From: Coriobacteriaceae bacterium AF08-21
GTDB lineage: Bacteria > Actinomycetota > Coriobacteriia > Coriobacteriales > Coriobacteriaceae
Reading direction: 5' to 3'
Length of the DNA stretch: 39,420 bases
Assembly (NCBI GenBank): GCA_027687465.1
Contig: JAQCQR010000022.1
Span: forward strand, 359-39,778
Part shown: positions 8,835-32,381 of the stretch, one piece after another
How positions within the stretch are numbered: position 1 is the first letter of the stretch
How the letters are laid out: each line of letters opens with the position of its first letter
Notes under the pieces: generated by a model
Seen by the model: the letters and a program-made list of their open reading frames with translations, nothing else
Told to the model about the DNA's origin: nothing
Database searches by the model: none
Position numbers and translations under genes: made by a program

Positions 8835-8965
8835 GGTTCGGGACTGCGGGCGAGGCATAAGGTTGGTCGCGAGTTCCGCACGCAAAGAAGGCCACTTAAT
8901 GTGGCCTTCGTCTTGCGCAGGACTGTAGAGCAGGCAACCTTATGCCTCGCCCGCAGTCCCGGACC
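8835..8965 (-). repeat. Long-arm hairpin element A (69-base conserved core)
   Basis: The arms 8835-8865 and 8935-8965 are inverted repeats, 26 bp of them perfect (8840-8865 with 8935-8960) and 30 of 31 overall. The core is 8866-8934. It contains an inner hairpin around GGCCAC-TTAAT-GTGGCC and flanking stretches TCGCGAGTTCCGCAC and GCAGGACTGTAGAGCAGG, which recur unchanged in elements B, C and D. The arm sequence (GGACTGCGGGCGAGGCATAA) is not shared with the other copies. The element starts 19 bases beyond the stop codon of the leftward coiled-coil gene and would be transcribed as its 3' untranslated region. Confidence 0.92.
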
Positions 8966-8984
8966 AACCAGCTTCAAGCCGCAG

Positions 8985-10190
8985 TTACGACAGCGCAATA
9001 CCGCCAAGCCAGCCCCAACGCACGCCCGACCCAGTGCCATAGAAGCTAATAAACGAATCAAGCGACTTAGACGTAATGGCGCCCTCGTTGCTCATTACGA
9101 TGCCGCCGCCAACGTAGATACCCACATGACCGTAGATAAGGCCCGGAGCACCCGTGCCGCTGTGCGAGGAATCGGCCACGATCATGCCCACCTGCAGCGC
9201 CGAGCGGTCGGAGCTATAGCACCAGGCGTTGAACATGTCACACGCGTTGCCGCCAAAATAGCCCACGCCGGCATTGCGGAAGACATTGGTAACCCACGCC
9301 GCGCACCAGTTCTGACCCGGCGAAGGCGTGGAGTAGCACGCGTTGACGACGGCCTGCTGCTTGCCCGAGCCGGCATTCTGCTGCGGAGTTCCGGGCGCAT
9401 ACGATCCACCGCCCGAGCTCGAACCACCCGAGTAGGAATTGTTCTTGTTCGCGGCGGCCGCGGCAGCGGCGGCCTTCCTAGCGGCCTCCTCGGCCTGGGC
9501 GGCAGCGAGAATCTCGGAATCGCGCTGAGCCATGAGCTCCTTGACGTCGTCGGAAAGACCGTTCAGCACGGTCTGGACTTCTTGCTGCTTGGCCTGCATA
9601 TCCTGCATCTGAGCCGTCTGCTGGTCCTTGAGTTTCTCCAGGTTGGCCTTTTGTGCTTCGAGCTCGGTCTTCTGCGCGTCGAGCTCAGCCTGAATCGTCT
9701 GGATATCCTCGATGGCATCGCGGTCGCTCTTGTTGATCTTCTCAACGTAATGCGCGTTGGCGACGAGTTCCTCAAACGAGCCAGAGGCCAGCAGCAGCGA
9801 CAGGATGTTCGTACCGCCGGACTTGTAGCTGGCGGCCACGCGATCGGAAAGGTCGTTGCGCTTCTTCTTGAGCTCGGCCTTCTTTTCATCGATCTGGGCC
9901 TGCGTGTCGTCAATCTTGCCCTGGACATTCTCGATGTCGTTGAGGGTCTGGGCATTCTTGTTGGCGAGCGCCGCGTACTCATTGGCAATGCTGTCGAGCT
10001 GAGCCTGGACCTCGTCGAGCTGGGCCTGGGCGGCATTCAGTTTGTCGGTGGTTTCTTGACTGGCCTCAGCCGCATGGGCGCGGGCGGGCAGGCCAAAAAG
10101 AACAGCCGCAGAAGCGGCGCCGAAAAGAGCCTTAAGGGCAGTGCGGCGCGAAAGCTCCTGCGTAAAGATGGAATCGTTGTTTGGTGACAT
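8985..10190 (-). CDS. Secreted coiled-coil protein with C-terminal CHAP/amidase-like domain
   Basis: 401 residues. The N-terminus has a Tat-like signal: SRRTALK, a hydrophobic stretch, then a cleavage site near ARAHA-AE (about residue 40). Residues about 45-245 form a long coiled coil of the PcsB/EnvC type (QAQLDEVQAQLDSIANEYAA; NILSLLLASGSFEELVANAH is typical of that family). A low-complexity Ala then Ser/Gly linker (about 245-285) follows. The last ~115 residues look like a CHAP or NlpC/P60-type cysteine amidase, with catalytic Cys in WCAAWVTNVFRNAG and His in GHVGIYVGGG. A role in septal or lateral peptidoglycan hydrolysis is likely. The start at 10190 has CGGAG 5 bases upstream. Tat export of such a hydrolase is less usual than Sec export. 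Confidence 0.9.
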   Translation of the reverse strand: MSPNNDSIFTQELSRRTALKALFGAASAAVLFGLPARAHAAEASQETTDKLNAAQAQLDEVQAQLDSIANEYAALANKNAQTLNDIENVQGKIDDTQAQIDEKKAELKKKRNDLSDRVAASYKSGGTNILSLLLASGSFEELVANAHYVEKINKSDRDAIEDIQTIQAELDAQKTELEAQKANLEKLKDQQTAQMQDMQAKQQEVQTVLNGLSDDVKELMAQRDSEILAAAQAEEAARKAAAAAAAANKNNSYSGGSSSGGGSYAPGTPQQNAGSGKQQAVVNACYSTPSPGQNWCAAWVTNVFRNAGVGYFGGNACDMFNAWCYSSDRSALQVGMIVADSSHSGTGAPGLIYGHVGIYVGGGIVMSNEGAITSKSLDSFISFYGTGSGVRWGWLGGIALS

Positions 10191-10393
10191 ATGTACTCCG
10201 TTACATGCTTATTTATATGTCGCTCAACTCAAACATATTAACGCACATCGCGCTTGTCCCAACTATTTCCACGAACGGCTGGAAAAGCATGGTCAGCGGC
10301 TCGCAAATACGTCCCACACCAAAGGTAAGGATTATGCAAATAACACCCTATGAGTACGTTAACATCAATCCTCTGGTTTTCCTGCCCCGCGTG

Positions 10394-10421
10394 TTTTGGG
10401 CGCCCCCAGCTGCGCTATACT
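10394..10421 (+). promoter_or_regulatory. Possible galE promoter
   Basis: TATACT at 10416-10421 is a good -10 box 38 bases before the galE start. The -35 candidate, TTTTGG at 10394-10399 with a 16-base spacer, is poor. The rest of the divergent gap 10191-10393 shows no clear structure. Confidence 0.4.
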
Positions 10422-10458
10422 CCCCTCAAGAAGTGTTCCTGATTCGATAGGAGACTAC

Positions 10459-11520
10459 ATGTCCAAAGCACTCGACCCCAAAGACACCTGCGTCCTCGTT
10501 ACCGGCGGCGCCGGCTTTATCGGCTCGCACACCGTCGTTCAGCTGCTCGAGGGTGGCTACCAGGTTGTCGTCGTCGATGACCTCTCCAACTCCAGCGCCG
10601 TTGCCATCGACCGCGTCAAGACCATCGTGGGCGACGAGGCCGCCAAGAACCTCACCTTCTACGAGGCCAACGTGCTCGACCGCGATGCGATGAACAAGAT
10701 CTTCGATACCCACCAGATCGACCGCGTCATCCACTTCGCCGGCTTTAAGGCCGTTGGCGAGTCGGTGAGCAAGCCCGTCGAGTACTACCACAACAATATC
10801 GAGAACACCCTGGTGCTCATCGATGTCATGCGCAACCACGGCTGTAAGTCCATCATCTTCTCGAGCTCTTCGACCGTCTACGGCGATCCGGACAATCCGC
10901 CCGTCACCGAGGAAGACCCCAAGAAGCCCGCAACCAACCCCTATGGCTGGACCAAGTGGATGATCGAGCAGATCCTTATGGACGTCCACACCGCCGACCC
11001 CGAGTGGGACGTCGTGCTGCTCCGTTACTTCAACCCCATCGGCGCTCATCCGTCGGGCCTGATCGGCGAGGACCCCAAGGGCATCCCCAACAACCTGGTG
11101 CCCTATGTCGCCCAGGTCGCCGTGGGCAAGCTCGAGGCCGTTCAGGTCTTTGGCAACGACTACCCCACCCCCGACGGCACCGGCGTGCGCGACTACATCC
11201 ACGTGTGCGATCTGGCCTCTGGTCACGTTGCCGCCCTTAACTGGATGAACGGCAAGACCGGCGTCGAGATCTTTAACCTGGGCACCGGCACCGGCACCTC
11301 GGTACTCGAGGTCGTCGCCGCCTTCTCCAAGGCTTGTGGCAAGGAGCTGCCCTACGTGATCCGCGAGCGCCGCGCCGGCGACATCGCTGCCAACTGGTGC
11401 GATGCCTCCAAGGCCGAGCGCATGATGGGCTGGAAGGCCCAGTACGACATCGCGGACATGTGCCGCGATAGCTGGAACTGGCAGAGCCACAACCCCAATG
11501 GCTTCGCCGACGCCGAGTAG
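10459..11520 (+). CDS. galE: UDP-glucose 4-epimerase
   Basis: 353 residues. GalE interconverts UDP-galactose and UDP-glucose with a bound NAD, in the Leloir pathway and in supply of sugar nucleotides for the cell surface. The Rossmann motif is TGGAGFIGSHT near residue 15. The active-site Ser/Thr lies in FSSSSTVYGDP, and the catalytic pair is Tyr162 and Lys166 in NPYGWTK. RYFNPIGAHPSG and DYIHVCDLASGHVAAL are family-typical. The start at 10459 has ATAGGAGA upstream; an in-frame start at 10396 would run through the promoter. It is a single-gene unit with its own terminator. Other gal genes are not in the window. Confidence 0.97.
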   Translation: MSKALDPKDTCVLVTGGAGFIGSHTVVQLLEGGYQVVVVDDLSNSSAVAIDRVKTIVGDEAAKNLTFYEANVLDRDAMNKIFDTHQIDRVIHFAGFKAVGESVSKPVEYYHNNIENTLVLIDVMRNHGCKSIIFSSSSTVYGDPDNPPVTEEDPKKPATNPYGWTKWMIEQILMDVHTADPEWDVVLLRYFNPIGAHPSGLIGEDPKGIPNNLVPYVAQVAVGKLEAVQVFGNDYPTPDGTGVRDYIHVCDLASGHVAALNWMNGKTGVEIFNLGTGTGTSVLEVVAAFSKACGKELPYVIRERRAGDIAANWCDASKAERMMGWKAQYDIADMCRDSWNWQSHNPNGFADAE

Positions 11521-11542
11521 CAAAAACCTACATACCGTTCTT

Positions 11543-11577
11543 GCCCCGATCTCACGTTGTGAGGTCGGGGCTTTTTT
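11543..11577 (+). terminator. Intrinsic terminator of galE
   Basis: GCCCCGATCTCAC-GTT-GTGAGGTCGGGGC, a 13 bp stem with one G-U pair, is followed by TTTTTT. It starts 22 bases after the galE stop codon. Confidence 0.95.
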
Positions 11578-11627
11578 CATGGCATGTAGCCATTCGCCGA
11601 AAATCGACCAACTTTTTTATCTTGCCT

Positions 11628-11656
11628 GTACATGTTTAAACAACATGTTTTACAAT
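11628..11656 (+). promoter_or_regulatory. Promoter and operator upstream of malQ
   Basis: TGTACA (11628-11633), a 17-base spacer and TACAAT (11651-11656) form a plausible promoter. The spacer contains a perfect inverted repeat CATGTT-TAAAC-AACATG (11631-11647), a position expected for a repressor. The inner GTTTAAACAA is the reverse complement of TTGTTTAAAC, which occurs twice in front of the PTS gene at 21721. Confidence 0.55.
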
Positions 11657-11741
11657 AGGCGTATCGAATCAGAACATCGGAGGCGGACTGCACACCCATC
11701 GGCAGGCCGACCCCACAACAAGAAGGTTGGTGAGCGCATTC

Positions 11742-13247
11742 ATGGAGCGTGCAAGCGGCGTCCTCATGCCCGTCTCATCTCTGCCCGGACCATACGGAAT
11801 CGGCGGCTTTGGCTGGAATGCCTACGACTTCGTCGATTTTCTCGCCTCGTGCAAACAACATTACTGGCAGATTCTGCCCCTTACGACGACCAGCTATGGC
11901 GATTCGCCTTATCAGTCGTTCTCGGCCCGCGCAGGCAACCCCAACTTTATCGACTTTGCCGAGCTTATCGAGGCAGGGTATCTGGAGCAGCGCGATATCG
12001 ATGGCGTGTATCTGGGATCCGACCCCAGCAATGTCGACTACGGTGCTATCTTTGGCGGCCGCCGTCAGATTCTCGACCGCGCCGCCGAGCGCTTTGCTGC
12101 CGACAAGCCGGCCGATTTCGATGACTTTATCCAGGCCAACGAGGACTGGCTCATCCCCTACTGTGAGTTCATGACCGTCAAAGAGGAGTGCGGTCTCAAG
12201 GCGTTTTGGGAGTGGCCCGCGGAGCTCCGCACCCGCGGCGAGGCTTCCGCCAAGGTCTGCGCCGACCATCCGGCGCGTATGCTCTACCACCAGATGACGC
12301 AGTACTTCTTCGATCGCCAGTGGAGCCGCCTCAAGGCCTATGCCAACGAGCGCGACATTCTCATCATCGGCGACCTGCCCATCTATGTCTCGCGTGACTC
12401 CGTCGAGATGTGGGCGACACCTGAGCTCTTTAAGATCGACGCCGCCGGCAATCCCGTGAGCGTCGCCGGCACGCCGCCCGACCAGTTCTCGGCCACCGGC
12501 CAGTACTGGGGCAACCCCATCTACGACTGGGACGCCATGGAGGCGTGCGGCTTCTCCTGGTGGGAGGGCCGCATTTGCGCCGCCCTCGACATGTACGACG
12601 TCATCCGCCTGGATCACTTCCGCGGCTTCGAGGCCTATTGGGAGGTGCCGTTCTCCTCGCCTGATTCGTCCTACGGTTCGTGGACGCAGGGTCCCGGCCT
12701 CAAGCTCTTCAAGACACTCGAGGAAAAGCTCGGCACGCTGCCCATCATCGCCGAGGACCTGGGCTTCCTCACCCCCGGCGTCATCGATATGCGCGACAAC
12801 TCGGGCTTCCCCGGCATGAAGATCCTGCAGTTTGCCTTTGAGGGCACCAACTCGTACTACCTGCCGCATAACTACATCGCCAACACCGTCGCCTATGTGG
12901 GCACCCACGATAACGAGACGGCGCGCGGTTGGTTTGAGGGAACGGCCACCCCGCGTCAGCGCGAGCAGGCAGCCCTGTACACCCATCAGCAGGCCGGCGA
13001 ACCCATGGCAGATGCACTCAATCGCACCATCGCCGCCAGCGTAAGCGACACGTGCATCTACACCATGCAGGACCTGCTCAACTTGGGCAACGAGGCGCGC
13101 ATCAACACCCCTGCCACGCTGGGCGGCAACTGGACCTGGCGCATGCTCGACGGCGCCATCACCCGCGAGCTCGAGCACAAACTCACCGACTGGACCGAGA
13201 CCTACTTCCGCATCCCGTCGGAAGCCAAAATCGAGCTTCCTCAATAG
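11742..13247 (+). CDS. malQ: 4-alpha-glucanotransferase (amylomaltase, GH77)
   Basis: 501 residues. MalQ transfers maltodextrin segments between chains, releasing glucose and building longer chains that phosphorylase can attack. The family start MERASGVLMPVSSLPGPYGI is visible. The catalytic residues read as Asp291 (RLDHFRGF, nucleophile), Glu338 (IIAEDLG, acid/base) and Asp390 (THDNETARGW). DLPIYVSRDS and SATGQYWGNPIYDW are also diagnostic. The start at 11742 is chosen because GGTGAG lies 7 bases upstream and matches the usual N-terminus; the frame is open to 11727. glgP follows 128 bases downstream on the same strand, giving a maltodextrin-degrading pair. An inverted repeat in the promoter suggests sugar-responsive repression. 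Confidence 0.97.
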   Translation: MERASGVLMPVSSLPGPYGIGGFGWNAYDFVDFLASCKQHYWQILPLTTTSYGDSPYQSFSARAGNPNFIDFAELIEAGYLEQRDIDGVYLGSDPSNVDYGAIFGGRRQILDRAAERFAADKPADFDDFIQANEDWLIPYCEFMTVKEECGLKAFWEWPAELRTRGEASAKVCADHPARMLYHQMTQYFFDRQWSRLKAYANERDILIIGDLPIYVSRDSVEMWATPELFKIDAAGNPVSVAGTPPDQFSATGQYWGNPIYDWDAMEACGFSWWEGRICAALDMYDVIRLDHFRGFEAYWEVPFSSPDSSYGSWTQGPGLKLFKTLEEKLGTLPIIAEDLGFLTPGVIDMRDNSGFPGMKILQFAFEGTNSYYLPHNYIANTVAYVGTHDNETARGWFEGTATPRQREQAALYTHQQAGEPMADALNRTIAASVSDTCIYTMQDLLNLGNEARINTPATLGGNWTWRMLDGAITRELEHKLTDWTETYFRIPSEAKIELPQ

Positions 13248-13295
13248 GAGCTACCGCGCCCGACCCCTCCCCACCGTGCGGACGCGCTTGCTTTT

Positions 13296-13335
13296 CCCGC
13301 GCGAGGCCACCCCAATCCCCTCGCGCGGGCTTCTT
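13296..13335 (+). terminator. Hairpin between malQ and glgP, possible partial terminator
   Basis: CCCGCGCGAGG (13296-13306) pairs perfectly with CCTCGCGCGGG (13319-13329), followed by CTTCTTAT. The U-tract is weak, so it may reduce rather than end transcription into glgP, or stabilise the malQ 3' end. Confidence 0.6.
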
Positions 13336-13375
13336 ATGAATTGCAGACATGAAACAACCCATCACAGGAGAAAAC

Positions 13376-15643
<2,268 letters not shown>

Positions 15644-15703: not shown

Positions 15704-15784
15704 GTGCCCGCACGTTACCCTGTGATCCGACTCGGCCAAACAATCTCGATCCATAACAACTACTCAACCAAAACGGTCCCAGCT

Positions 15785-15960
15785 GTTACAGATTGAGACA
15801 TACCGGCCCCTCCCCTTGGGTTTATCTCAATCTGTAACATCTAGCAGGTGAAATTCGCCTTTGGTGTTACAGATTTAGATGAAATGGTTAGCTCAGCGGA
15901 ACCGTCTCGATCTGTAACATCTAACGTCCGAAATCGGCCCTATCCGTTACAGATCGAGAC
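15785..15960. repeat. Five-copy array of an alternating 15-base motif
   Basis: The motif GTTACAGATYGAGAY occurs at 15785-15799 (+), 15824-15838 (-), 15866-15880 (+), 15904-15918 (-) and 15946-15960 (+). Start-to-start distances are 39, 42, 38 and 42 bases. Orientation alternates strictly. The spacers after copies 2 and 4 resemble each other (ATCTAGCAGGTGAAATTCGC and ATCTAACGTCCGAAATCGGC), so the array looks like a ~80-base unit repeated twice. It occupies the gap between two convergent transcription units. No coding frame is visible. Confidence 0.9.
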
Positions 15961-16099: not shown

Positions 16100-17299
16100 C
16101 TAGATAAGGTTCTTGCCGGAGACCTTATCGAAGAGATGGGTCGCGTTCTTCTCGAACTTGAACCAGATGGTGTCGCCCGCCTTGAGCGCGCCCTTGGCCT
16201 CGAGGTCGACGACGGGGATAATCAGGACAAACTGGCCATCGGGAGCGGTCACGTGGACATGCTCGGTCGAGCCCATGAGCTCGGTCACCTCGACGGTGCC
16301 CTGGAGCGCACCCTCCTCGTCCTTGTCGGCAAGCAGAATCTGCTCGGGGCGCACGCCGGCCGTAATCTCCTTCACGTCGCCGCCGTCCCAGTTGAGAGCA
16401 AGCTGAGCGCAGGTCTCGGGAGCGAGCGCCACGTTCATATCCTCGGTCTTGACGGTAAAGCCGTTGCCCGAGCGCACCAGCTGGGCATCGAAGAAGTTCA
16501 TCTGCGGCACGCCGATAAAGCCGGCAACGAAGATGTTCGCGGGATGGTTGAAGACCTCCTGCGGCGTGGCGATCTGCTGGACGACGCCGTCCTTCATGAC
16601 CACGATACGATCGCCGAGGGTCATGGCCTCGGTCTGGTCGTGAGTGACGTAGATGAACGTGCCCTTGATCTCGTGGCGCAGCTTGATGAGCTCGGCACGC
16701 ATCTGGTTACGCAGCTTGGCGTCCAGGTTGGACAGTGGCTCGTCCATCAGGAAGACCTTAGGATCACGCACGATGGCGCGGCCGATAGCGACACGCTGGC
16801 GCTGACCGCCCGAAAGCGCCTTAGGCTTACGGTCGAGGTACTCGGTGATACCCAAGATCTCGGCAGCGGAGCGAACCTTGCGGTCGATCTCGTCTTTGGG
16901 GACTTTCTTGAGCTCAAGCGTAAACGCCATGTTCTCGTATACCGTCATGTTGGGGTACAGAGCGTAGCTCTGGAACACCATGGCGATGTCGCGGTCCTTG
17001 GGCGCCACGTCGTTGACGCGCTTGCCGTCGATGAGCACGTCGCCCGAGGTAATGTCCTCCAGGCCGGCGACCATGCGCATCGTCGTGGACTTACCGCAGC
17101 CAGAGGGGCCAACGAGAACGATGAACTCCTGGTCATGCACGGTGAGGTTAAAGTCCTCCACCGCGAGCACGCCGTCTTCGGTAACCTTGAGGTTGTGCTT
17201 CTTCTCCTCGGTCTTCTTCTTTTTGCCAAAGAAGCCCTTCTTTTTGGACTCGTTGTTGGGATACACCTTCTGAACATGTTTGAGAACGATCTCGGCCAT
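16100..17299 (-). CDS. ugpC: Sugar ABC transporter ATP-binding protein (MsmK/UgpC/MalK type)
   Basis: 399 residues. The ATPase powers an oligosaccharide importer at the inner face of the membrane. Walker A is GPSGCGKST (residues 64-72), the Q-loop is in VFQSYALYPNMTV, the signature is LSGGQRQR, Walker B is VFLMDEPLSNLD and the switch His is in YVTHDQTEAM. A C-terminal TOBE/OB regulatory domain (about 260-399) is typical of MalK/MsmK proteins. Unusually, a Lys-rich insert (about residues 15-37, including KKKGFFGKKKKTEEKKH) splits the first beta strands, which other family members lack. The gene ends the operon, 68 bases after the second permease. Such ATPases often serve several importers. Confidence 0.96.
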   Translation of the reverse strand: MAEIVLKHVQKVYPNNESKKKGFFGKKKKTEEKKHNLKVTEDGVLAVEDFNLTVHDQEFIVLVGPSGCGKSTTMRMVAGLEDITSGDVLIDGKRVNDVAPKDRDIAMVFQSYALYPNMTVYENMAFTLELKKVPKDEIDRKVRSAAEILGITEYLDRKPKALSGGQRQRVAIGRAIVRDPKVFLMDEPLSNLDAKLRNQMRAELIKLRHEIKGTFIYVTHDQTEAMTLGDRIVVMKDGVVQQIATPQEVFNHPANIFVAGFIGVPQMNFFDAQLVRSGNGFTVKTEDMNVALAPETCAQLALNWDGGDVKEITAGVRPEQILLADKDEEGALQGTVEVTELMGSTEHVHVTAPDGQFVLIIPVVDLEAKGALKAGDTIWFKFEKNATHLFDKVSGKNLI

Positions 17300-25448: not shown

Positions 25449-26354
25449 ATGGAACCTATTACAACGGGCATGCAGGGAGCAGCCGTCGAGGACGTGCAGT
25501 CTCGTCTCCTGCAGCTCGGCTACACGATTGATGCCACCGAGGTCGCCGACAAGCACTTTGGTGCTACCACCGAGCAGGCCGTTAGCACCTTTAGGCTCGA
25601 CAGCGGTCTTGCCGCTGGCTGTGCCGTCGATATCCCCTGCTGGAGCGCCCTGGTCGACGCCTCATATAAACTGGGCGACCGCACGCTCTATCTGCGCATG
25701 CCCAATTTCCATGGTGCCGACGTGCAGGCCCTGCAGAAGGCGCTCAACGTTTTGGGCTTTGCCTGCGGCGAGGACGATGGCTACTTTGGCCCGCACACCG
25801 AGGCGGCCCTTCAGCAGTTCCAGGAAAACGTCGGTCTGTTTGCCGACGGCATGGCTTTCCAGGATACCTACGCCTACATCAACCGCCTGCACCACGTATG
25901 GGAGGGTAAACCTTCGGTGACCGAGGCTGAATCGCGCATCGGCTTTGCCCGCGCTGCAAACGTGCTCGAGCGCTTCCAGATCGCCGTCATCGGCGAGGAT
26001 CCCATCGCGCGCAGTGTTGCGTCGCGCATGTGGAATATCGCCACGGCGACGACCGACAACAGCGGCATGATGCTTTGCGACTCCGAGGTTCCGACCGATG
26101 TCGACCTGGTGCTCGAGATCGCAAGCGACGAGCTGCCCGCCGACGCCGCTCCACGCGCCACGATTGCCCTCGCCGAATGCCACAACCTGGCCCAGCGCAT
26201 CCGCACTGCCAATGTCGCCGCGCAGCAGAAGCCGGCACGCATTCGCATTGAGCTCACGGGCATGACGCGCTACAACGGCACCTTCACGGCCAGCGACGCG
26301 CAGACACTCGCCGTACGCCTGCTCGACGGCGTTTGCGATGCCCTCGCAGATTAG
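25449..26354 (+). CDS. Protein with two peptidoglycan-binding-type repeats, no signal peptide
   Basis: 301 residues. Two PG_binding_1-like repeats are visible: residues about 5-65 (TGMQGAAVEDVQSRLLQLGYTI ... FGATTEQAVSTFR) and about 85-150 (ADVQALQKALNVLGFACGEDDGYFGPHTEAALQQFQ). The rest (about 165-301) is alpha/beta, begins RFQIAVIGEDPIARSVASRM and looks Rossmann-like, but I do not recognise it. There is no signal sequence or membrane helix, which is odd for a wall-binding module and hints at a cytosolic role or non-classical release. The ATG at 25449 is preceded by GAAAGGGG. tRNA-Gln follows 38 bases after its stop codon. Function unknown. Confidence 0.85.
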   Translation: MEPITTGMQGAAVEDVQSRLLQLGYTIDATEVADKHFGATTEQAVSTFRLDSGLAAGCAVDIPCWSALVDASYKLGDRTLYLRMPNFHGADVQALQKALNVLGFACGEDDGYFGPHTEAALQQFQENVGLFADGMAFQDTYAYINRLHHVWEGKPSVTEAESRIGFARAANVLERFQIAVIGEDPIARSVASRMWNIATATTDNSGMMLCDSEVPTDVDLVLEIASDELPADAAPRATIALAECHNLAQRIRTANVAAQQKPARIRIELTGMTRYNGTFTASDAQTLAVRLLDGVCDALAD

Positions 26355-26392
26355 GTAAACTAAACGAGTTGCTTTTGGGCAACACCACACAT

Positions 26393-26464
26393 TGGGACGT
26401 AGTTCAACGGTAGAACTCCGGTTTTTGGTGCCGGCTGTTGGGGGTTCGAATCCCTCCGTCCCAG
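26393..26464 (+). tRNA. tRNA-Gln (anticodon UUG)
   Basis: The acceptor stem TGGGACG/CGTCCCA, D-arm GTTC-AACGGTA-GAAC, anticodon stem CCGGT/GCCGG with loop TTTTGGT (anticodon TTG) and T-arm GGGGG-TTCGAAT-CCCTC fold completely. The discriminator base is G. CCA is not encoded. U1-A72 is typical of bacterial tRNA-Gln. Confidence 0.97.
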
Positions 26465-26477
26465 CCCTTAAGAACAC

Positions 26478-26516
26478 AGCGCTCCAGGTCCTTATGAACC
26501 TGGAGCGCTTTCTTGT
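26478..26516 (+). terminator. Terminator of tRNA-Gln
   Basis: AGCGCTCCAGGT-CCTTATGA-ACCTGGAGCGCT, a perfect 12 bp stem, is followed by TTCTTGT. It starts 13 bases after the tRNA. Confidence 0.92.
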
Positions 26517-26519
26517 GGG

Positions 26520-26770
26520 CAAGCGGAGGGATTCGAACCCGCGAGGGTGCGGAGCTGAGGAACGCGAAGCGTTTTCCAGCGCAGCACGCAAGGAGCGAAG
26601 CGACGCAGCGGGGCGCGGCCGCCGACCAGGCGGACGCGGAATCCCTCCGTCCCACACCAGCCAAGAGCCCCTCACGTCAAGCAAATCGAGCCAACGCCGC
26701 CAAGCGGAGGGATCCGAACCCGCAAGGGTGCGGAGCGACGCAGCGGCGCGCGGGCGCCGCAGGCAGACGC
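26520..26770. repeat. Two related GC-rich repeats carrying tRNA 3'-end-like sequence
   Basis: CAAGCGGAGGGATTCGAACC.. (from 26520) recurs at about 26700 with two or three changes over 35 bases, followed in both by GTGCGGAG and GCGACGCAGCGG. The second copy lacks about 45 bases present in the first. The motif is the reverse complement of a tRNA T-arm and acceptor end. Between them, AATCCCTCCGTCCCA at 26640-26654 exactly repeats the last bases of tRNA-Gln (26449-26463). No genuine protein is coded here. Confidence 0.8.
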
Positions 26771-26773
26771 GGT

Positions 26774-26805
26774 GTCGGCACTTAGGGACGTTCCTAAAGT
26801 GCCGG
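26774..26805. repeat. Short extragenic palindrome
   Basis: GTCGGCACTTAGGGA pairs with TTCCTAAAGTGCCGGC around a two-base CG centre, with one wobble and a one-base bulge. It resembles a REP-type hairpin. No U-tract follows. Confidence 0.6.
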
Positions 26806-26839
26806 CTCGGGACTATTTTCGAGGACCCTCCGAAGGACT

Positions 26840-27069
26840 GTGGCCAAAAAACGGCAAATATGAGTACTGTTACCGTTGTAGCTACATTATTTTCGTTAAT
26901 AAAAGAAGATCTTAATGAGACTTATTCGCATCAAGGTCTTCCTTTAATGAACACTTGAGGAGATACGGCAGCTTATCTGCTCGATCGACACGTCAAATCA
27001 CCTTAAATGTGGTCAAAATTACTGCTACTAAAAGAGTATCAGTACTCATATTTGATGTTTTTTGGCCAC
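26840..27069. mobile_element. MITE-like element with 34 bp terminal inverted repeats
   Basis: Bases 26840-26873 (GTGGCCAAAAAACGGCAAAT...) and 27036-27069 are inverted repeats with 31 of 34 matches. The enclosed ~160 bases are markedly AT-rich compared with the surroundings and contain no convincing gene. This plan fits a non-autonomous transposable element. No clear target-site duplication is seen. Confidence 0.65.
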
Positions 27070-27107
27070 GGCTCTTTATAGACACCCTGCACAGCGACGG
27101 CGGTAGA

Positions 27108-27140
27108 TTTCGGAACGTGTCCGTCAGCCCCGTTCCGAAA
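27108..27140. other. Hairpin in the tRNA-Gln downstream region
   Basis: TTTCGGAACG (27108-27117) pairs perfectly with CGTTCCGAAA (27131-27140), with a 13-base loop. It could be a weak bidirectional terminator. The A/T ends of the stem give short U-rich tails in both directions. Confidence 0.5.
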
Positions 27141-27172
27141 AGCGAGCCGCATGCAACGGCCAAGCCACGACA

Positions 27173-27309
27173 GGCCCCGGGAGAGCGGGGACACCGGCTT
27201 AGGTTTATCGCGAGTTCCGCACGAACAGGAGGCCACTCAATGTGGCCTCCGTCGTGAGCAGGACTGTAGAGCAGGAAACCTAAGCCGGTGTCCCCGCTCT
27301 CCCGGGGCC
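27173..27309 (-). repeat. Long-arm hairpin element B (69-base conserved core)
   Basis: The arms 27173-27206 and 27276-27309 are perfect inverted repeats of 34 bp. The core 27207-27275 has the invariant TCGCGAGTTCCGCAC and AGCAGGACTGTAGAGCAGG, and an inner stem GAGGCCAC-TCAAT-GTGGCCTC. Relative to A and D, the stem carries an A-T to G-C paired change. The arm sequence is unlike A, C and D apart from AGGTTT next to the core. The element begins 8 bases beyond the stop codon of the leftward JetD-like gene. Confidence 0.95.
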
Positions 27310-27317
27310 GGCGGAAT

Positions 27318-29510
27318 TTAGTTGTTAAGCATGCGGTCGAAGCTTCCCGAGTCGCCATCCCGATAGTCGGCGGTCATCAGAATCTCCTGCGGAATGCGCC
27401 CGCCCTCGCGCAGCACATTGCGGAACTGCACGCGCGTGACCATGGGCAGATCCTTGATCGTCGCCGCCAAGTTCTGCGGCACGCCCTGGTTGGCAGCCGC
27501 GGGCTCGCACTCGCCGCCGGCCTTCACGCGACGCTTATGCTCGGCGAGCATGGCGCGGTACATGCCGGCATGCAGGCGAATCTCAACCACATTGGCATTG
27601 CGAGCCTGCTCGACGATGCGCGCGCCCTCGCGGTCGATATCGCCCACGTAGTAGACGTAGTTAAAGCGATAGCCGATCTCGGCCAGATAATCGTCCAGGG
27701 CATGCGAGACGCTCGCCTTGCATCCGCCGCCAAAAATCACGCCGCCCACCTTGATGCCAAAGAGCTTGGCGTGCTTGCGGCCACGCAGCAGCCTGACGAT
27801 CTCGTCGTAGGTGTCCAGGTTCTCGACCATAATGAACGGCTTATCGGCGCCCAGCGTAAAGAAACCCGTAAAGTGCACGGGGCGGTTGGGGGCGACCTTG
27901 ATCGCCTGCATGCTGATGCCCTTTTCGGTCATGCGCCTTATCAGGCGCTCACCGTGCTTGCCGTCAAAAGCCTTCTCGTCGTTAAAAATCTGGTAGGCAC
28001 GCTGGCGGCGCGAGGCAACCGGCGTATCGGCACCTCGGTTTTGCTCGATCCAAGCCTGGATGATTGCGATTTCCTCGGCAATCTTGCGGTTGGACATCTC
28101 GTTGTGCTGAGTGCGCTGCGGCGCCTTTTTGCCGTCCTTGCCCTCGACCTTAACAATTTGAGTCTGCTGTTCCTTGATCTTAGAGAGCGCCGTAGGCGTA
28201 GGGACAACTTTGAGCAGCTGCCTGCCCAAAACGCGGGCAAGGGCAAACGCCGATACCTCGCCGTGGACGGCCGACTCGGGCTGCTGGGTAGCACTATCAG
28301 CCGCGGCAGGCTCAGCCTGTGCATGAGGCTTACGCTTGGAATCTGCCCGGGTATTACGTTCCTGCTTGGGCGCAGACGAGCGCTTTTGTGGACGATCGGA
28401 CTTGGCCTCCTTCGCCGGCTGGCGCTTGACCTGATCCACCGGAGTCTCGGCCTTCTCATCTCCGTTTTGTGTCGCTGTCTTCTCGGCCGCGGCCTCGGCA
28501 TTTGAGCCACGACCGCCGCGGTGACGACGACGGCGGGGCTTGCCTGAGGCGCTCTCCCCCGCCTGCTTATCAGCGGTCTGTTGAGCTTTGACCTCAGTGT
28601 CAGCCGCAGGCTGCGACTCGGAAGGTTGCTGCTCGCGAGCCGCCGGCTCAACGGTTTTCTCGGTTTGTTCGGCCTTCTCGGCCTGAGCGGTCGGAGCCGG
28701 CTCGCCCTTCTCCTGACGCCTTACGGGATACGCGCGCCTCGCAAAACCACGTCCGGGACGACATGAGCCCGGGGCCTTCTTGGCAGACTCCTCAACATCG
28801 TCTGCGGCCTCGGAAAGCTCTTCAACCTCATGCGCGACATCCTGCTGCGCAGCCTTAAAGTGGGCACCACGGCGACGCTGGGGCTCCTGGGCCTCCACGG
28901 GCTTTTGCTCCTTCGCGGGCCTCTGCGACTCGGCAGCAACCTCGTTCTCAACAGCCTCGGCATCCGTCTCACCCTTTCGAGCAACGGCGCGACGGAAGCG
29001 CTCCTGCTGGGCGCGACGCTGCGCATCGCGCTTGCCACCCCCGCCAAAACCGCCGCGCCCTGCCTTGGCCGTAAAGGCACGCACGACGTTCTCATCGAGC
29101 AACTCATCGGTATCAACATGCTCACGCGGAGCAACTTCTTCCACAGCAGGCACGTCAGCGGAATCCTCGACGACAAAATCTTCGACGGACTCGGCAGGCT
29201 GCTCCTGGGCATCGCGGATCTCGACATTGATGGTATAGAACGCCGGGCGCCCGTTAATGCCGCTGCCCTCGATCTTGGTCACGATATTTGCCGCGATAAG
29301 CTCATCGCGCATCGCCTTGGTATCGCATTCCTTATCGACGGAGCGGAAAATCTGCGCCAGCGCGCTCGACTTAATCTTGAGCGCCTTGCGGCAGAGCAGG
29401 TCGTAGGCAACCAGCTTGGCGCGCTCGGCAGAAAGCGACGTCTGGCTGCTCAGACGCTCAGCCAGAGCATCGACATTGTTTTGATTATCGGAATATACCG
29501 TCTTGGCCAC
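27318..29510 (-). CDS. Winged-helix / disordered / Toprim-like protein resembling the JetD C-terminal domain
   Basis: 730 residues from a GTG start at 29510 (AAAGGGG 4 bases upstream; begins MAKTVYSDNQNNVDALAERL). Residues about 10-110 look like a winged helix (LAQIFRSVDKECDTKAMRDE). Residues about 110-450 are low-complexity, rich in Glu, Lys, Arg, Ala and Gln, with patches such as RRRRHRGGRG, probably disordered and nucleic-acid binding. The end (about 480-730) resembles the Toprim-like domain of JetD/DUF2220 and topoisomerase VI A: VENLDTYDEI (Glu563) and GDIDREG (623-629, Asp pair). In Wadjet defence JetD is the nuclease, but no JetABC genes are here. A role on DNA or RNA is likely; defence is unproven. 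Confidence 0.75.
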   Translation of the reverse strand: MAKTVYSDNQNNVDALAERLSSQTSLSAERAKLVAYDLLCRKALKIKSSALAQIFRSVDKECDTKAMRDELIAANIVTKIEGSGINGRPAFYTINVEIRDAQEQPAESVEDFVVEDSADVPAVEEVAPREHVDTDELLDENVVRAFTAKAGRGGFGGGGKRDAQRRAQQERFRRAVARKGETDAEAVENEVAAESQRPAKEQKPVEAQEPQRRRGAHFKAAQQDVAHEVEELSEAADDVEESAKKAPGSCRPGRGFARRAYPVRRQEKGEPAPTAQAEKAEQTEKTVEPAAREQQPSESQPAADTEVKAQQTADKQAGESASGKPRRRRHRGGRGSNAEAAAEKTATQNGDEKAETPVDQVKRQPAKEAKSDRPQKRSSAPKQERNTRADSKRKPHAQAEPAAADSATQQPESAVHGEVSAFALARVLGRQLLKVVPTPTALSKIKEQQTQIVKVEGKDGKKAPQRTQHNEMSNRKIAEEIAIIQAWIEQNRGADTPVASRRQRAYQIFNDEKAFDGKHGERLIRRMTEKGISMQAIKVAPNRPVHFTGFFTLGADKPFIMVENLDTYDEIVRLLRGRKHAKLFGIKVGGVIFGGGCKASVSHALDDYLAEIGYRFNYVYYVGDIDREGARIVEQARNANVVEIRLHAGMYRAMLAEHKRRVKAGGECEPAAANQGVPQNLAATIKDLPMVTRVQFRNVLREGGRIPQEILMTADYRDGDSGSFDRMLNN

Positions 29511-29612
29511 GGGGCCCCTTTCATATGCACACATATACGTCCATATGGTACAACGCACGAGCCTATCCACGCAAAACATCTGCGAGAACGCCCTTGCACC
29601 ACCTGTTATCAC

Positions 29613-29654
29613 AAGAAAAAAGACCGGGTCCGCTTGATTGCGGACCCGGTCTTT
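29613..29654 (-). terminator. Intrinsic terminator of cstA
   Basis: AAAGACCGGGTCCGC (29619-29633) pairs perfectly with GCGGACCCGGTCTTT (29640-29654). On the leftward strand the stem is followed by TTTTTTCTTG. It starts 39 bases beyond the cstA stop codon. The rest of 29511-29612 shows only the upstream region of the JetD-like gene, with no clear promoter. Confidence 0.93.
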
Positions 29655-29693
29655 CCGAGTCAAATAGATGGGAGATTCAACCCGTCCGACCGA

Positions 29694-31583
29694 CTAGGCC
29701 TTAGCGGCCTCGGCGTCGGCAGGAGCTTCAGCGGCAGCGGCGCGACCGTACTCGGCCTTGCCCATCTCGGACCACTCGGGCTCCTCGTCGGGCATGGAGC
29801 CGGCCTCCTTGCCGAAGAACTCCTTGAGGCAGTTGACGGCGACGATGAGGCCCAGGACCATCAGCAGGACGGCGAAAACGAGCTGCAAGCCCTTGGTGGC
29901 GGCGACGGAGACGGCGGCCGTGGTGGCGGTAGCCGGGATGGTGCCGAAGAAGCCGTAAGCCTGGACAGCGGTCATGCAGCCCATGGCGCTCTGGACCAGC
30001 GAGGTGAAGGTGCAGCAGAGCAGGAAGGCGACGGGCACGTAGAGCATCCAGCCCTTGCGGCCGGTGCACTTGCAGAACACGGCGAGGGTGATCATGGTCA
30101 TGCCGCCGAGCAGCTGGTTGGAAGCACCAAAGAGCGGCCAGATGTTGGCATAGCCGCCAAAGGCGAGGGCGAGACCGGGAAGCAGGGTGACGACCGTGGC
30201 GAACCAGGGGTTGCCGAGAACCTTCATGTAGCCGGCCTTGGACTCGATGGCCAGGGCGTCGTTGGTCTGGGCAAAGAACTCGGAGAACGAGGTGCGGGCG
30301 ATGCGGGCGACGGCATCGAGCGAGGTCAGGGCCAGAGCGGAGACGTTCATGGTCATGAAGACGGTAGCGAGCGTGCCGTCAACACCGAAGGCCTGCATAC
30401 CGCGGGAGATGCCAGCGGCGAAGATCTGGAACGGGGTGGAAGCGACGCCGGCGTTGAGGGCACCGGTGCCGGCGGTGTTCATATCGGAGAACATGATGCC
30501 GGCGACGATGATGGCAAGGATGCCGACGAAGGACTCGACGATCATGGCGCCATAACCGACCTTGACGGCGTCCTGCTCCTTCTCGACCTGCTTGGAGGAG
30601 GTACCAGAAGAAACGAGGCTGTGGAAGCCGGAGAGGGCACCGCAGGCAACGGAAACAAACAGGACCGGGAACATCATGCCAGAAGCGCTGGAGAAGCCGG
30701 TAAAGGCCGGAGCGGTGATGGTGGCCTGGCCGTTAACACCCAGGACGACGATACCGAGGACAGCGCAGGCGATCATGACGATCATCATGATGGAAGTGAG
30801 GTAGTCGCGAGGGGTCTTGAGCATCTGGATGGGCATGGCGCCAGCAAAGACCAGGTAGACCATGACAACGGCGAACCACTGGAACTTGTCCAGGTAGACC
30901 GGGAACTGCATGCCGACGGCAAACATGAGAACCATGAGCACCACGCCAGTGACAAACTCGGCAGCGCCGGTGAGGTTGAACTTCTTCTGGGCCCAACCAA
31001 AGGCGATAGCGACGAAGGTGAACAGGATGGAGATGGTACCAGCGCAGCCGGCGGCATAGGACTTGGTGAAGTCGATGGCACCGGTAGCAGCACCAGAAGC
31101 GTCAACGGCCGGGGTGAACATGAACGTCTTGCAGACCATGTCGGTGAAGGCGGCGATGACGATGATGCAGAACAGCCAGCAGAACAGCAGGAACAGGCGA
31201 CGGCCGGTCTTGCCGATGTACTTCTCGATGAGCTGAGCGAGCGACTTGCCGTTGTTCTTCATCGAGGCGTACAGGGCGCCAAAGTCGTGGACGGCGCCAA
31301 AGAAGATGCCGCCGACGAGGACCCAGAGCACGACGGGCAGCCAGCCAAAGGCCATGGCGACGATCGTACCCGTGACAGGGCCAGCACCGCAGATCGAGCT
31401 GAACTGGTGCGAGAACGCGGTAAAGGCGGAGACGGGTGAGAAGCTCTTGCCGTCCTTCATGCGCTTGGCCGGCGTGAGGGCCTCTTTGTCAACGCCCCAC
31501 TTGTTGGCCAGCCAGCGGCCGTAGCCCAGATAGCCGCAGGCGAGCACCGCCGCGGCCACAACCATGAGCAAAACTCCGTTCAT
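29694..31583 (-). CDS. cstA: CstA-family carbon starvation / pyruvate or peptide transporter
   Basis: 629 residues with about 16-18 predicted membrane helices. Diagnostic stretches are FSHQFSSICGAGPVTGTIVA, GIFFGAVHDFGALYASMKNNG, VACGALSGFHSLVSSGTSSKQV and WPLFGASNQLLGGM. Family members import pyruvate (BtsT) or support peptide use (CstA) during carbon limitation. It is near the length of short CstA proteins (E. coli CstA about 700). The C-terminus is Ala/Glu-rich and cytosolic. GAGGAGG lies 7 bases before the ATG. The 235-base leader contains a strong terminator and a 14-codon Ile/Val-rich reading frame, pointing to attenuation control. It is a single-gene transcript with its own terminator. 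Confidence 0.95.
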   Translation of the reverse strand: MNGVLLMVVAAAVLACGYLGYGRWLANKWGVDKEALTPAKRMKDGKSFSPVSAFTAFSHQFSSICGAGPVTGTIVAMAFGWLPVVLWVLVGGIFFGAVHDFGALYASMKNNGKSLAQLIEKYIGKTGRRLFLLFCWLFCIIVIAAFTDMVCKTFMFTPAVDASGAATGAIDFTKSYAAGCAGTISILFTFVAIAFGWAQKKFNLTGAAEFVTGVVLMVLMFAVGMQFPVYLDKFQWFAVVMVYLVFAGAMPIQMLKTPRDYLTSIMMIVMIACAVLGIVVLGVNGQATITAPAFTGFSSASGMMFPVLFVSVACGALSGFHSLVSSGTSSKQVEKEQDAVKVGYGAMIVESFVGILAIIVAGIMFSDMNTAGTGALNAGVASTPFQIFAAGISRGMQAFGVDGTLATVFMTMNVSALALTSLDAVARIARTSFSEFFAQTNDALAIESKAGYMKVLGNPWFATVVTLLPGLALAFGGYANIWPLFGASNQLLGGMTMITLAVFCKCTGRKGWMLYVPVAFLLCCTFTSLVQSAMGCMTAVQAYGFFGTIPATATTAAVSVAATKGLQLVFAVLLMVLGLIVAVNCLKEFFGKEAGSMPDEEPEWSEMGKAEYGRAAAAEAPADAEAAKA

Positions 31584-31618
31584 TACATTTCCTCCTCTAA
31601 AAAGAACTTCCTAGACAT

Positions 31619-31657
31619 AAAAAATGAGGGCCGTCGGTTGCGCTCGACGGCCCTCAT
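31619..31657 (-). terminator. Terminator in the cstA 5' leader (attenuator)
   Basis: ATGAGGGCCGTCG (31624-31636) pairs perfectly over 13 bp with CGACGGCCCTCAT (31645-31657). On the leftward strand it is followed by TTTTTT. It ends 35 bases before the cstA ATG on the same transcript, so it must be conditional if cstA is to be expressed. Confidence 0.9.
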
Positions 31658-31660
31658 CTT

Positions 31661-31745
31661 CATCAGCCGCCCGTTATCGTACGGGCTAGCTGTATGTGCT
31701 AACCCGCATCAGATAATTACTACGCTGATAATGTTTAGCTGATGC
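31661..31745 (-). promoter_or_regulatory. Competing hairpins of the cstA leader
   Basis: Leftward, GCATCAG (31745-31739) can pair with CTGATGC (31712-31706). The overlapping CATCAGC (31744-31738) can instead pair with GCTGATG (31667-31661). GGGTTAGC/GCTAGCCC (31705-31698 with 31690-31683) competes with GCCCGT/ACGGGC (31686-31681 with 31674-31669). These mutually exclusive pairings lie between the leader peptide and the terminator, as in amino-acid attenuators. I did not find a full antiterminator that sequesters the terminator arm. Confidence 0.65.
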
Positions 31746-31753
31746 GTGAACAT
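31709..31753 (-). CDS. Leader peptide MFTHQLNIISVVII upstream of cstA
   Basis: A 14-codon frame starts at ATG 31753 and stops at TGA 31711-31709. GAAGAGGA lies about 10 bases upstream. Seven of the 14 residues are Ile, Val or Leu, with IISVVII at the end, and the stop codon falls inside the first leader hairpin. That is the plan of ilv-type leader peptides, where ribosome stalling at scarce Ile- or Val-tRNA prevents termination. A longer frame starting at 31777 is in phase but lacks a ribosome site. Confidence 0.7.
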   Translation of the reverse strand: MFTHQLNIISVVII

Positions 31754-31824
31754 GTCTAAGAAATCCTCTTCAATCATGATGCGAACGATCCGTGCGTGTT
31801 CACATCCCCCAGTGGATGAAAAGG

Positions 31825-31853
31825 AGTATGAAACTTTAGTTACCTAAAGTCAA
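31825..31853 (-). promoter_or_regulatory. cstA promoter with overlapping operator-like palindrome
   Basis: On the leftward strand TTGACT (31853-31848), a 17-base spacer and CATACT (31830-31825) form a strong promoter; transcription would start near 31818. The spacer region holds a perfect inverted repeat ACTTTAG-TTAC-CTAAAGT (31833-31850) that overlaps the -35 box, a good place for a repressor. Confidence 0.8.
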
Positions 31854-31952
31854 CGCAAATAAGTAATGAATTTTCAACTTTTTTGAATTTCTCGTTATAA
31901 AACGCCACTGACCTCGGACTTTACCGAACGACAGTTTTTGCTTAAGAGATGC

Positions 31953-32101
31953 CCCTGAGAGCCGCGGGAGCCGGGCGGCGCATTTGAACTTTCCTGCTCT
32001 ACAGTCCTGCGCAAGACGGAAAGCACATTAAGTGCTTTCCTTTGCGTGCGGAACTCGCGATAAAGTTCATATGCGCCGCCCGGCTCCCGCGGCTCTCAGG
32101 G
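31953..32101 (+). repeat. Long-arm hairpin element C (69-base core, opposite orientation)
   Basis: The arms 31953-31992 and 32062-32101 are inverted repeats of 40 bp with one mismatch. The core 31993-32061 is the reverse complement of the A/B/D core. Its inner stem carries four paired changes relative to D (GAAAGCAC/GTGCTTTC in place of AAGGCCAC/GTGGCCTT), all of which keep pairing. The GC-rich arms (CGCGGGAGCCGGGCGGCGCA) are unlike the other copies. It lies about 100 bases upstream of the cstA promoter. Unlike the others it does not directly follow a stop codon. Confidence 0.95.
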
Positions 32102-32116
32102 ATTCCCATCCCAAAT

Positions 32117-32152
32117 GTGCGGAGCAAAGCTCCGCACGCCAACTTTTTCTTT
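32117..32152 (+). terminator. Rightward terminator-like hairpin after element C
   Basis: GTGCGGAGC-AAA-GCTCCGCAC (32117-32137) is a perfect 9 bp stem followed by GCCAACTTTTTCTTT. No rightward protein gene precedes it, so it may end a non-coding transcript running through element C. The rest of 32153-32246 shows nothing recognisable. Confidence 0.5.
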
Positions 32153-32246
32153 CAGCTAAAGAACGCCGGAAATTCGACACTGGCTTGTTAACCTTGCTGG
32201 ACGTTGTCGACGCCAAACCAGCTCAGAAGCTACATCAATACAGAAA

Positions 32247-32381
32247 GGTCCCCGGCCGGAGGGGCCGGATATAAGGTTTATCGCGAGTTCCGCACGCAAA
32301 GAAGGCCACTTAATGTGGCCTTCGTCTTGCGCAGGACTGTAGAGCAGGAAACCTTATATCCGGCCCCTCCGGCCGGGGACC
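32247..32381 (-). repeat. Long-arm hairpin element D (69-base conserved core)
   Basis: The arms 32247-32279 and 32349-32381 are perfect inverted repeats of 33 bp (GGTCCCCGGCCGGAGGGGCC...). The core 32280-32348 is identical to that of element A except for its first base. The element begins 12 bases beyond the stop codon of the tsaB-rimI-tsaD gene and probably forms the 3' end of that operon's transcript. The leftward strand continues with TTTCTGTATTGATG, a partial U-tract, so it could also act as the terminator. Confidence 0.95.

What the first reader, a model, noticed from the sequence alone, without database searches (positions are those of the whole stretch)
8835..32381. Family of four intergenic elements: one conserved 69-base core inside locus-specific, perfectly self-complementary 31-40 bp arms
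Elements A (8835-8965), B (27173-27309), C (31953-32101, inverted) and D (32247-32381) have cores of exactly 69 bases. The arms pair within each copy over 31, 34, 40 and 33 bp with 1, 0, 1 and 0 mismatches, yet the GC-rich arm sequences are unrelated between copies. Only about six bases beside the core (AAGGTT, AGGTTT, GAACTTT) are alike. Ordinary repeat families share their whole sequence, so this pattern needs a mechanism. Options are insertion into the loop of pre-existing palindromes such as terminators, a copying step that builds an inverted flank at each site, or arms kept identical by template switching. As RNA, each would be a long double-stranded hairpin with a conserved internal loop. 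I know of no named element with this design; the Rfam Collinsella-1 motif should be compared first.
Basis: partly seen in the sequence, partly recalled or inferred. Interest (0 to 1): 0.93.

Follow-up and report, generated by a model that had tools for sequence, protein, structure and literature searches.

The report
Constant-core hairpins with self-matching arms
Collinsella and related bacteria carry up to dozens of small intergenic hairpin elements that share one conserved core, while the long stem arms differ from site to site yet nearly always stay complementary within each copy, likely because replication copies one arm onto the other; the hairpins would act at the ends of genes.

Summary
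In detail: four elements (A-D), 69-base cores, arms of 31, 34, 40 and 33 bp. A covariance model finds the family in 40 of 43 congeners and 120 of 246 genomes drawn from the class (43 of 110 genera), about 30 copies in G040; 30 of 30 distant loci opened have a recognisable core and near-perfect arms. No Rfam 15 family reaches its cut-off. Sites are mostly shared between the two sister genomes compared (24 of 27), and the right end lies within 50 nt of the stop codon of a gene read towards it in 45 of 52 cases (left end: 7 of 56). Arms often change on both sides together; about half of these changes are transversions, and in the C. aerofaciens group G-T pairs are no commoner than A-C. So arm-to-arm template switching is the likely keeper of complementarity. 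Insertion into pre-existing palindromes is disfavoured; arms tested have no other genomic source. Function is not shown; I favour a hairpin acting in untranslated mRNA ends. New variant of a known kind (dispersed extragenic palindromes, structured RNA).

The parts
8835..8865 (+). element A, left arm (31 nt)
   Evidence: (inside I5): 31 pairs, 1 mismatch
8866..8934 (+). element A, 69-nt conserved core
   Evidence: 115.5 bits
8935..8965 (+). element A, right arm; ends 19 nt before the stop codon of the minus-strand ORF 8985-10190
27173..27206 (+). element B, left arm (34 nt)
   Evidence: (I7): 100% complementary
27207..27275 (+). element B, 69-nt conserved core
   Evidence: 115.8 bits
27276..27309 (+). 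element B, right arm; ends 8 nt before the stop codon of the minus-strand ORF 27318-29663
31953..31992 (-). element C (inverted), right arm in the core's sense (40 nt); the nearest gene on this side, minus-strand ORF 29694-31583, begins 369 nt away, so C is the exception to the gene-end rule
   Evidence: (I6)
31993..32061 (-). element C, 69-nt conserved core with the GGAAAGCAC/GTGCTTTCC inner helix
   Evidence: 107.7 bits
32062..32101 (-). element C, left arm in the core's sense (40 nt, 1 mismatch)
32247..32279 (+). element D, left arm (33 nt)
   Evidence: (I8): 100% complementary
32280..32348 (+). element D, 69-nt conserved core
   Evidence: 116.7 bits
32349..32381 (+). element D, right arm; ends 12 nt before the stop codon of the minus-strand ORF 32394-34796

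Best explanation
These are members of a class-wide family of long hairpin elements, mostly inherited at fixed places beside genes, with a conserved bulged core and arms that are likely kept complementary by replication template switching, which copies one arm onto the other; the hairpin would act in the untranslated ends of neighbouring mRNAs. Shown: the family, its spread, the conserved core, the site-specific self-complementary arms, paired changes in both arms, shared sites in the sister genomes compared, and a fixed orientation next to gene ends. Inferred: that template switching (quasipalindrome correction) rather than stepwise compensation keeps the arms matched, so that a mutation in one arm is either copied to the other or lost, and arm sequence drifts freely while complementarity does not. 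Inferred: that the arms matter only as a stem that presents the bulged core. Predicted and untested: that the working form is RNA, at most sites the strand read out of the gene whose stop codon lies beside the right arm (a 3' UTR hairpin), in a minority (for example thrB) a 5' UTR hairpin just before the ribosome-binding site; the core would be bound by an unidentified factor that sets mRNA 3' ends, stability or translation.
For: Arms strong in 119 of 131 distinct elements, 72 of the 119 perfect; 78 mismatches in 4035 pairs. Among 28 diverse copies chosen for strong arms, 99.8% of 588 cells pair, 19 of 21 pairs change on both sides, only 4 cells are G-U; cells with two-sided change 211 against 60 in shuffles. 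In orthologous alleles 44 positions changed on both arms, 21 of them transversions (11 C/G), which G-U intermediates do not give. At site D both half-converted and both fully converted states of one short change occur (L001, L005, L007, L048). Sites shared: 24 of 27 placed G040 elements are present in G015. Orientation 429 placements same, 4 flipped, one site. Right end within 50 nt of a stop codon: 45 of 52 against 7 of 56, p 2e-15; without G015 33 of 40 against 6 of 38, p 4e-9. Recurrent neighbourhoods: between clpX and valS (G040, G015, L224), after ispF (G051, L221, L018), after serC (L199, L203, L216), between thrC and thrB (G040, G015, L015, L016) (gene names by my reading of the sequences). 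PMC8794818 (abstract and passages) describes template switching creating and mending perfect stems.
Against: No transcript data. No strand bias relative to co-directional neighbours (+E+ 33, -E- 29), awkward for a one-stranded RNA. Elements do not clearly stand in for U-tract terminators (beyond the element 11 of 29, 1 of 13, 1 of 10; genes without an element 97 of 364, 26 of 121, 12 of 110), and no promoter peak. One-sided differences outnumber two-sided ones, 117 to 44, in 68 non-independent allele pairs. Template switching between arms can also invert the loop, yet flips are seen at one site only. The site D states could be recombinants between alleles rather than copying intermediates. Half of ortholog pairs have wholly different arms with few intermediates, which looks like discrete replacement or allele exchange, not steady drift. 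Outside the aerofaciens group G-U exceeds A-C (31 to 7 in G051, much of it one fixed pair near the core; 9 to 2 in four distant genomes), as RNA-level selection on the core strand would give; that strand is not the one read out of the adjacent gene at most sites. In one search the number of pair types does not exceed shuffles (44 against 43).
Confidence: 0.45

Rival explanations
1. A non-autonomous mobile DNA hairpin, like a REP/REPIN: a transposase or recombinase reads the bulged core as single-stranded DNA and spreads whole hairpins; the arms then diverge at each site.
For: About 30 copies per genome in some Collinsella, none found in 3 of 43 congeners; six G051 copies share the innermost 16-22 nt of the arms and the same mismatches, so arms move with the core; Y1 transposases are commoner in element genomes (58 of 78 against 50 of 168, clade-confounded, element list transcribed by hand at E about 1e-8); equal G-T and A-C mismatches in the aerofaciens group.
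Against: 20 of those 78 genomes have no Y1_Tnp match, among them single-contig G119 and G123. No clean insertion polymorphism or target duplication found between G040 and G015. No exact-pattern hit in the viral contigs, none in the phage collection; one record in the plasmid collection, a 0.9 Mb Collinsella replicon equal in length to contig C6 of G008.
Confidence: 0.25
2. An ordinary structured RNA whose arms stay paired by stepwise compensatory mutation through G-U intermediates.
For: Strong covariation in arms and inner helix; outside the aerofaciens group G-U exceeds A-C (9 to 2, and 31 to 7 in G051).
Against: G-U is 4 of 588 cells in A1 and 4 of 914 pairs of the inner helices; in the aerofaciens sets G-U equals A-C (13 to 11, 18 to 18); about half of two-sided changes are transversions.
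Confidence: 0.12
3. A double-stranded DNA or cruciform site for a chromosome-organising or transcription-blocking protein at gene ends.
For: Position and orientation beside gene ends on either strand; both strands can form the arm stem.
Against: A duplex-binding protein would not need 30-40 bp complementary arms; loops conserved between two variable helices suggest a folded single strand.
Confidence: 0.1
4. The core inserted into the loops of pre-existing palindromes such as terminators.
For: At some sites the outer 6-11 nt of both arms are shared while the inner arms and core differ (site D; sites 0 and 3).
Against: Core-less palindromes with unique long arms are rare: 37 non-core against 49 core palindromes of arm 18 or more in 759 kb of loci chosen around elements, the non-core ones mostly shared-sequence repeat families (by eye); outer flanks show no U-tract.
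Confidence: 0.03
5. A copying step at insertion builds an inverted copy of the target flank.
For: Arms are unique to their site in the cases tested (two arms in six genomes).
Against: Recent G051 copies share arms; the unoccupied counterparts found are deletion remnants, repeat replacements or too diverged to read, not single-arm sites.
Confidence: 0.05

Closest known systems
REP / BIME / REPIN elements with RAYT (TnpA-REP)
   Same: Dispersed intergenic palindromes in many copies, often touching gene ends (PMC3733652, one passage), in opposite orientations in BIMEs (PMC2817692, abstract start), persistent (PMC8049555, abstract start)
   Different: REPs keep the palindrome sequence; here the core is constant and the stem is free. 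Longer (131-149 bp in the window), no GTAG/CGTC tag at the base, no Y1 transposase match in 20 of 78 element genomes
Perfect hairpins made and mended by template switching (PMC8794818, abstract and passages)
   Same: Perfect Watson-Crick stems, multi-base paired changes not needing G-U intermediates
   Different: That paper treats RNA genes such as rRNA and microRNA; here a multicopy intergenic family with arms mostly of 20-45 bp
Rfam mraW RNA (RF01746)
   Same: Long GC-rich stem; sub-threshold score on element D, minus strand
   Different: Only the arms align; the core falls in an unaligned 72-nt stretch; 41.6 bits against a cut-off of 50. Long-stem miRNA families (e.g. RF04198) score likewise far below cut-off
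Collinsella-1 RNA (RF01700)
   Same: Recorded for Actinobacteria and human gut (PMC2864571 table, passage)
   Different: No match at gathering over the window, nor at relaxed E-values over A, B, C or D

Membership tests
REP/REPIN | conserved palindrome sequence shared by copies | tested here: not met
   arms unrelated between most sites; recent G051 copies are the exception
REP/REPIN | GTAG or CGTC tag at the end of the palindrome (PMC3733652) | tested here: not met
   base composition of outer flanks shows only A (about half) before the first G; no tag
REP/REPIN | cognate Y1 transposase in the genome | tested here: not met
   20 of 78 strong element genomes have no PF01797 match, including single-contig G119 and G123; presence is nevertheless associated (58 of 78 against 50 of 168)
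REP/REPIN | many dispersed intergenic copies | tested here: met
   31 in G040, 27 in G015, 33 in G051 within fetched DNA
Collinsella-1 RNA | score at or above the Rfam gathering cut-off | tested here: not met
   not listed at relaxed E-values
mraW RNA | score at or above the gathering cut-off with the loop region aligned | tested here: not met
   41.6 of 50 bits, D only, core unaligned
Structured noncoding RNA (general) | covarying helices around conserved loops | tested here: met
   copies chosen for strong arms; chosen by core only
Structured noncoding RNA (general) | is transcribed and works as RNA | not testable with these tools
   no transcript data; no promoter or terminator signal
Insertion-sequence derived MITE | target-site duplication and clean empty sites | tested here: inconclusive
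   no clean empty site among the 27 G040 elements that could be placed in G015

The most novel reading that the evidence does not exclude
A class-wide, previously unnamed family of self-correcting DNA hairpins: only the bulged core and the act of pairing are under selection, each locus writes and rewrites its own private 30-40 bp stem by copying arm to arm, and a dedicated, still unknown machine reads the hairpin at gene ends.
Probability: 0.3. Interest if true: 0.88.

Novelty: new variant of a known kind. Interest (0 to 1): 0.72.

Why it matters
It is an abundant feature (about 30 copies in some genomes) of human gut bacteria that no Rfam 15 model names at its cut-off. Because arms of many sites and strains can be compared, it turns an open question, whether long stems stay perfect by selection through G-U steps or by template switching, into a counting problem in a natural bacterial family. 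The gene-end position rule, if it reflects function, predicts a shared and unstudied step in mRNA end formation or gene insulation in this class. Such hairpins may also be why some assemblies of these genomes break where they do.

Tried and rejected
Rfam: over the window only a tRNA reaches its cut-off; over 20 distant loci only RNase P and an L31 leader, both away from the element. Relaxed hits to MIR1144, MIR8670, MIR2118, MIR1846 and mraW are below cut-off and follow the long stem.

Mobile by phage or plasmid: no support. REP-type transposase: associated with element genomes but missing from 20 of 78.

Intrinsic terminator or own promoter: no clear signal. A k-turn reading of the internal loop was considered and dropped because the GCAG subtype lacks the second G-A step (by eye, no call).

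A loose first regular expression gave 796 mostly false contexts and was replaced. Model hit counts per genome include weak hits of the opposite strand of the same hairpin, so copy numbers are taken, where I kept 112 of the 179 listed matches. In one search one G040 element (index 55) was printed EMPTY although the gap begins inside a core; I count it as occupied. G015 stretches were first fetched round its own elements, then round places of G040-only elements, so the 24 of 27 is not a random sample. In one search the 23 pairs were picked by me: one (30/53) was unplaced and was paired partly by its arms; two occupied elements (51, with a short-core counterpart, and 85, a hybrid) were left out; pair 26/37 has a stem cut short by mismatches and is counted as alike by eye; pair 9/22 has poor flank identity and is the flipped site.

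Arms as captured sequence: two arms looked for in six genomes, found only at their own site except two 3-mismatch hits, one each in G015 and G054.

Papers: the rows listed by searches named no such element; the library lacks most subscription journals. PMC8040213 predicts thousands of gut RNAs and names one in Collinsella before the L7/L12 gene (passage); its tables could not be opened here, so an unnamed listing of this family there is not excluded.
Full report
WHAT IS THERE. The window holds four elements with a 69-nt core between self-complementary arms, as described, and no fifth. Each folds into one long hairpin: arms, an internal loop (GCGAGTTCCGCA... / ...GGACTGTAGAGC), an inner 9-bp helix and a small loop. 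The inner helix differs between copies with both sides changed (GAAGGCCAC, GGAGGCCAC, GGAAAGCAC and their partners), so the conserved part is the loops between two variable helices.

HOW WIDE. The 77-nt core region matches 18 of 39 relatives, all 18 in the same genus. An exact pattern in the collection of 84,980 named species genomes gave 94 stretches; 80 titles were printed and all read Collinsella. A covariance model from 28 copies matches 40 of 43 congeners and 120 of 246 genomes drawn from the class, 43 of 110 genera, in other families and orders, at E up to 0.001 (genomes there are unnamed; that the class is Coriobacteriia is my inference from the Collinsella titles). I opened 30 distant loci from 23 of these genomes: 30 of 30 show a recognisable core and arms of 19-37 bp with 0-3 mismatches, including the three from other orders, where the core is most changed. 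Weak hits include the opposite strand of the same hairpin, so per-genome counts there are inflated. In stretches fetched around hits I count 112 elements: 31 in G040, 27 in G015, 33 in G051, 21 in four more distant genomes.

ARMS. In 131 distinct elements found mainly through the core, 119 have strong arms, 72 of them perfect; 78 of 4035 pairs mismatch (G-T 22, A-C 26, other 30). The 12 without strong arms are mostly copies cut by contig ends or hybrids whose left arm belongs to one element and right arm to another. Choosing cores by sequence alone, 74 of 81 have arms, against 13 of 20,000 random positions. Left arms are G-rich and begin with G in 94 of 130, with A before it in about half.

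HOW ARMS CHANGE. At one site many strains share arms. Differences are often present on both arms: 44 two-sided and 117 one-sided positions in 68 allele pairs that are not independent; 21 of the 44 are transversions. At site D the old and new forms of a short change occur as old/old, new/new, new/old and old/new arm pairs in different genomes; recombination between alleles could also give the mixed ones. In the C. aerofaciens group G-T and A-C mismatches are equal (13 to 11; 18 to 18); in G051 and four distant genomes G-T is commoner (31 to 7, much of it one fixed pair near the core; 9 to 2). Some sites carry two allele types that share the outer 6-11 nt of both arms but have unrelated inner arms and a different core subtype. 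Of 23 ortholog pairs between G040 and G015 that I compared, 12 have alike arms and 11 have different ones, with few in between (how they were picked is told under tried and rejected). Two homologous thrB leaders, in G023 and G017, keep an identical core with unrelated arms beside nearly identical coding sequence. Two arms looked for in six whole genomes occur only at their own site, apart from two 3-mismatch hits.

MOVEMENT. Of 31 G040 elements, 27 could be placed in fetched G015 DNA: 24 sites occupied; the other three are a collapsed pair that left an arm remnant and one site holding another repeat; four could not be placed. Unoccupied counterparts elsewhere are deletion remnants, other sequence, or too diverged to read. 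So in this comparison elements are mostly inherited in place. New copies do arise: six copies in G051 share the 16-22 innermost arm nucleotides, including the same mismatches, with different neighbours and partly different inner helices. At the der gene G051 and the genome nearest to it there, G055, both have an element with different arms; in three further relatives I see none. Copy number varies by lineage, with no model hit in 3 of 43 congeners.

PLACE. With gene calls from my own codon-usage script, 92 of 112 elements lie between genes; 20 that overlapped a called reading frame were left out. The right end of the core strand is within 50 nt of the stop codon of a gene read towards it in 45 of 52 cases (median 17 nt); the left end in 7 of 56 (median 162 nt); Fisher p 2e-15, and 33 of 40 against 6 of 38 (p 4e-9) without G015, which shares sites with G040. 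In the 11 close pairs that I read off both right ends point outwards. A minority lie just before a start codon, for example of thrB, valS, leuS, cysS and serA homologues (names from my reading of the sequences), and some neighbourhoods recur: between clpX and valS in G040, G015 and L224 (another family), after ispF in G051, L221 and L018, after serC in L199, L203 and L216. Orientation at orthologous sites is kept in 429 placements and flipped in 4, all one site. In the window A, B and D follow the rule (19, 8 and 12 nt from a stop codon); C does not.

MECHANISM. Complementarity without sequence conservation, at near-perfect Watson-Crick level, with two-sided transversions and both half-converted states, is what copying of one arm onto the other during replication predicts; PMC8794818 (abstract and passages) reports such events for RNA stems. 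Steady selection through G-U steps predicts G-U pairs and transitions, which are not in excess in the best-sampled group, though G-U is in excess in G051 and the distant genomes. What the hairpin does is not shown. The position rule, the kept orientation and the wide conservation of the core argue for function. I favour a hairpin in untranslated mRNA ends; a mobile single-stranded DNA hairpin is the main rival. Tests for U-tract terminators, promoters and a Y1 transposase did not explain the family.

STANDING. No Rfam 15 family reaches its cut-off on the elements; sub-threshold hits follow the stem. The rows listed by my literature searches show no such element in the held library; supplementary tables of large RNA surveys could not be opened. 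It resembles a dispersed extragenic palindrome but fails three REP-defining features tested here. I call it a new variant of a known kind.

Noticed in passing
window 15744-15959: Three tandem 55-nt units about 80 nt apart with matching ends (TCTCGATCTGTAACA ... TGTTACAGATCGAGA) and variable centres, between ORF 13349-15643 and ORF 16100-17299; they look like repeated operator palindromes ((D2)).
   Followed up: no
window 3565-3633: A 29-bp, 97% complementary palindrome with an 11-nt loop and no core (I9).
   Followed up: partly
window 26520-26555 and 26701-26736: Two near-identical stretches resembling the 3' part of a tRNA on the minus strand (recalled resemblance); ARAGORN calls only tRNA-Gln at 26392-26467.
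   Followed up: partly
window 26833-26893 and 27016-27076: A 61-nt inverted pair, 77% complementary, just left of element B (I4).
   Followed up: no
L254 (G015) and L140, at the site of the G040 element in L235: A short-core variant (CGCGCAG, small hairpin, CTGTTTGAGCA) inside long arms; model R1 did not list it, so true copy numbers are probably higher (also near L284).
   Followed up: partly
L115 761-860: A different palindrome (28-nt arms, 44-nt centre holding GGCGGCGC/GCGCCGCC) beside a truncated copy of element B; possibly a second family of this plan.
   Followed up: no
L269-L284 (G051): An ordinary palindromic repeat AAAATGCGTCATTTAGGGTCTGACCCTAAATGACGCATTTT in many copies, several directly beside the elements.
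   Followed up: partly
L061-L154: Other shared-sequence palindromic repeats (ATTGGGGACAGACTTAAATG; TTGCGGTGAAATAGGGACTG) in these loci.
   Followed up: no
L069, L076, L107, L111, L134: The stored stretches, which reach contig ends, stop inside or right beside these elements, as expected if the hairpins break short-read assemblies.
   Followed up: no
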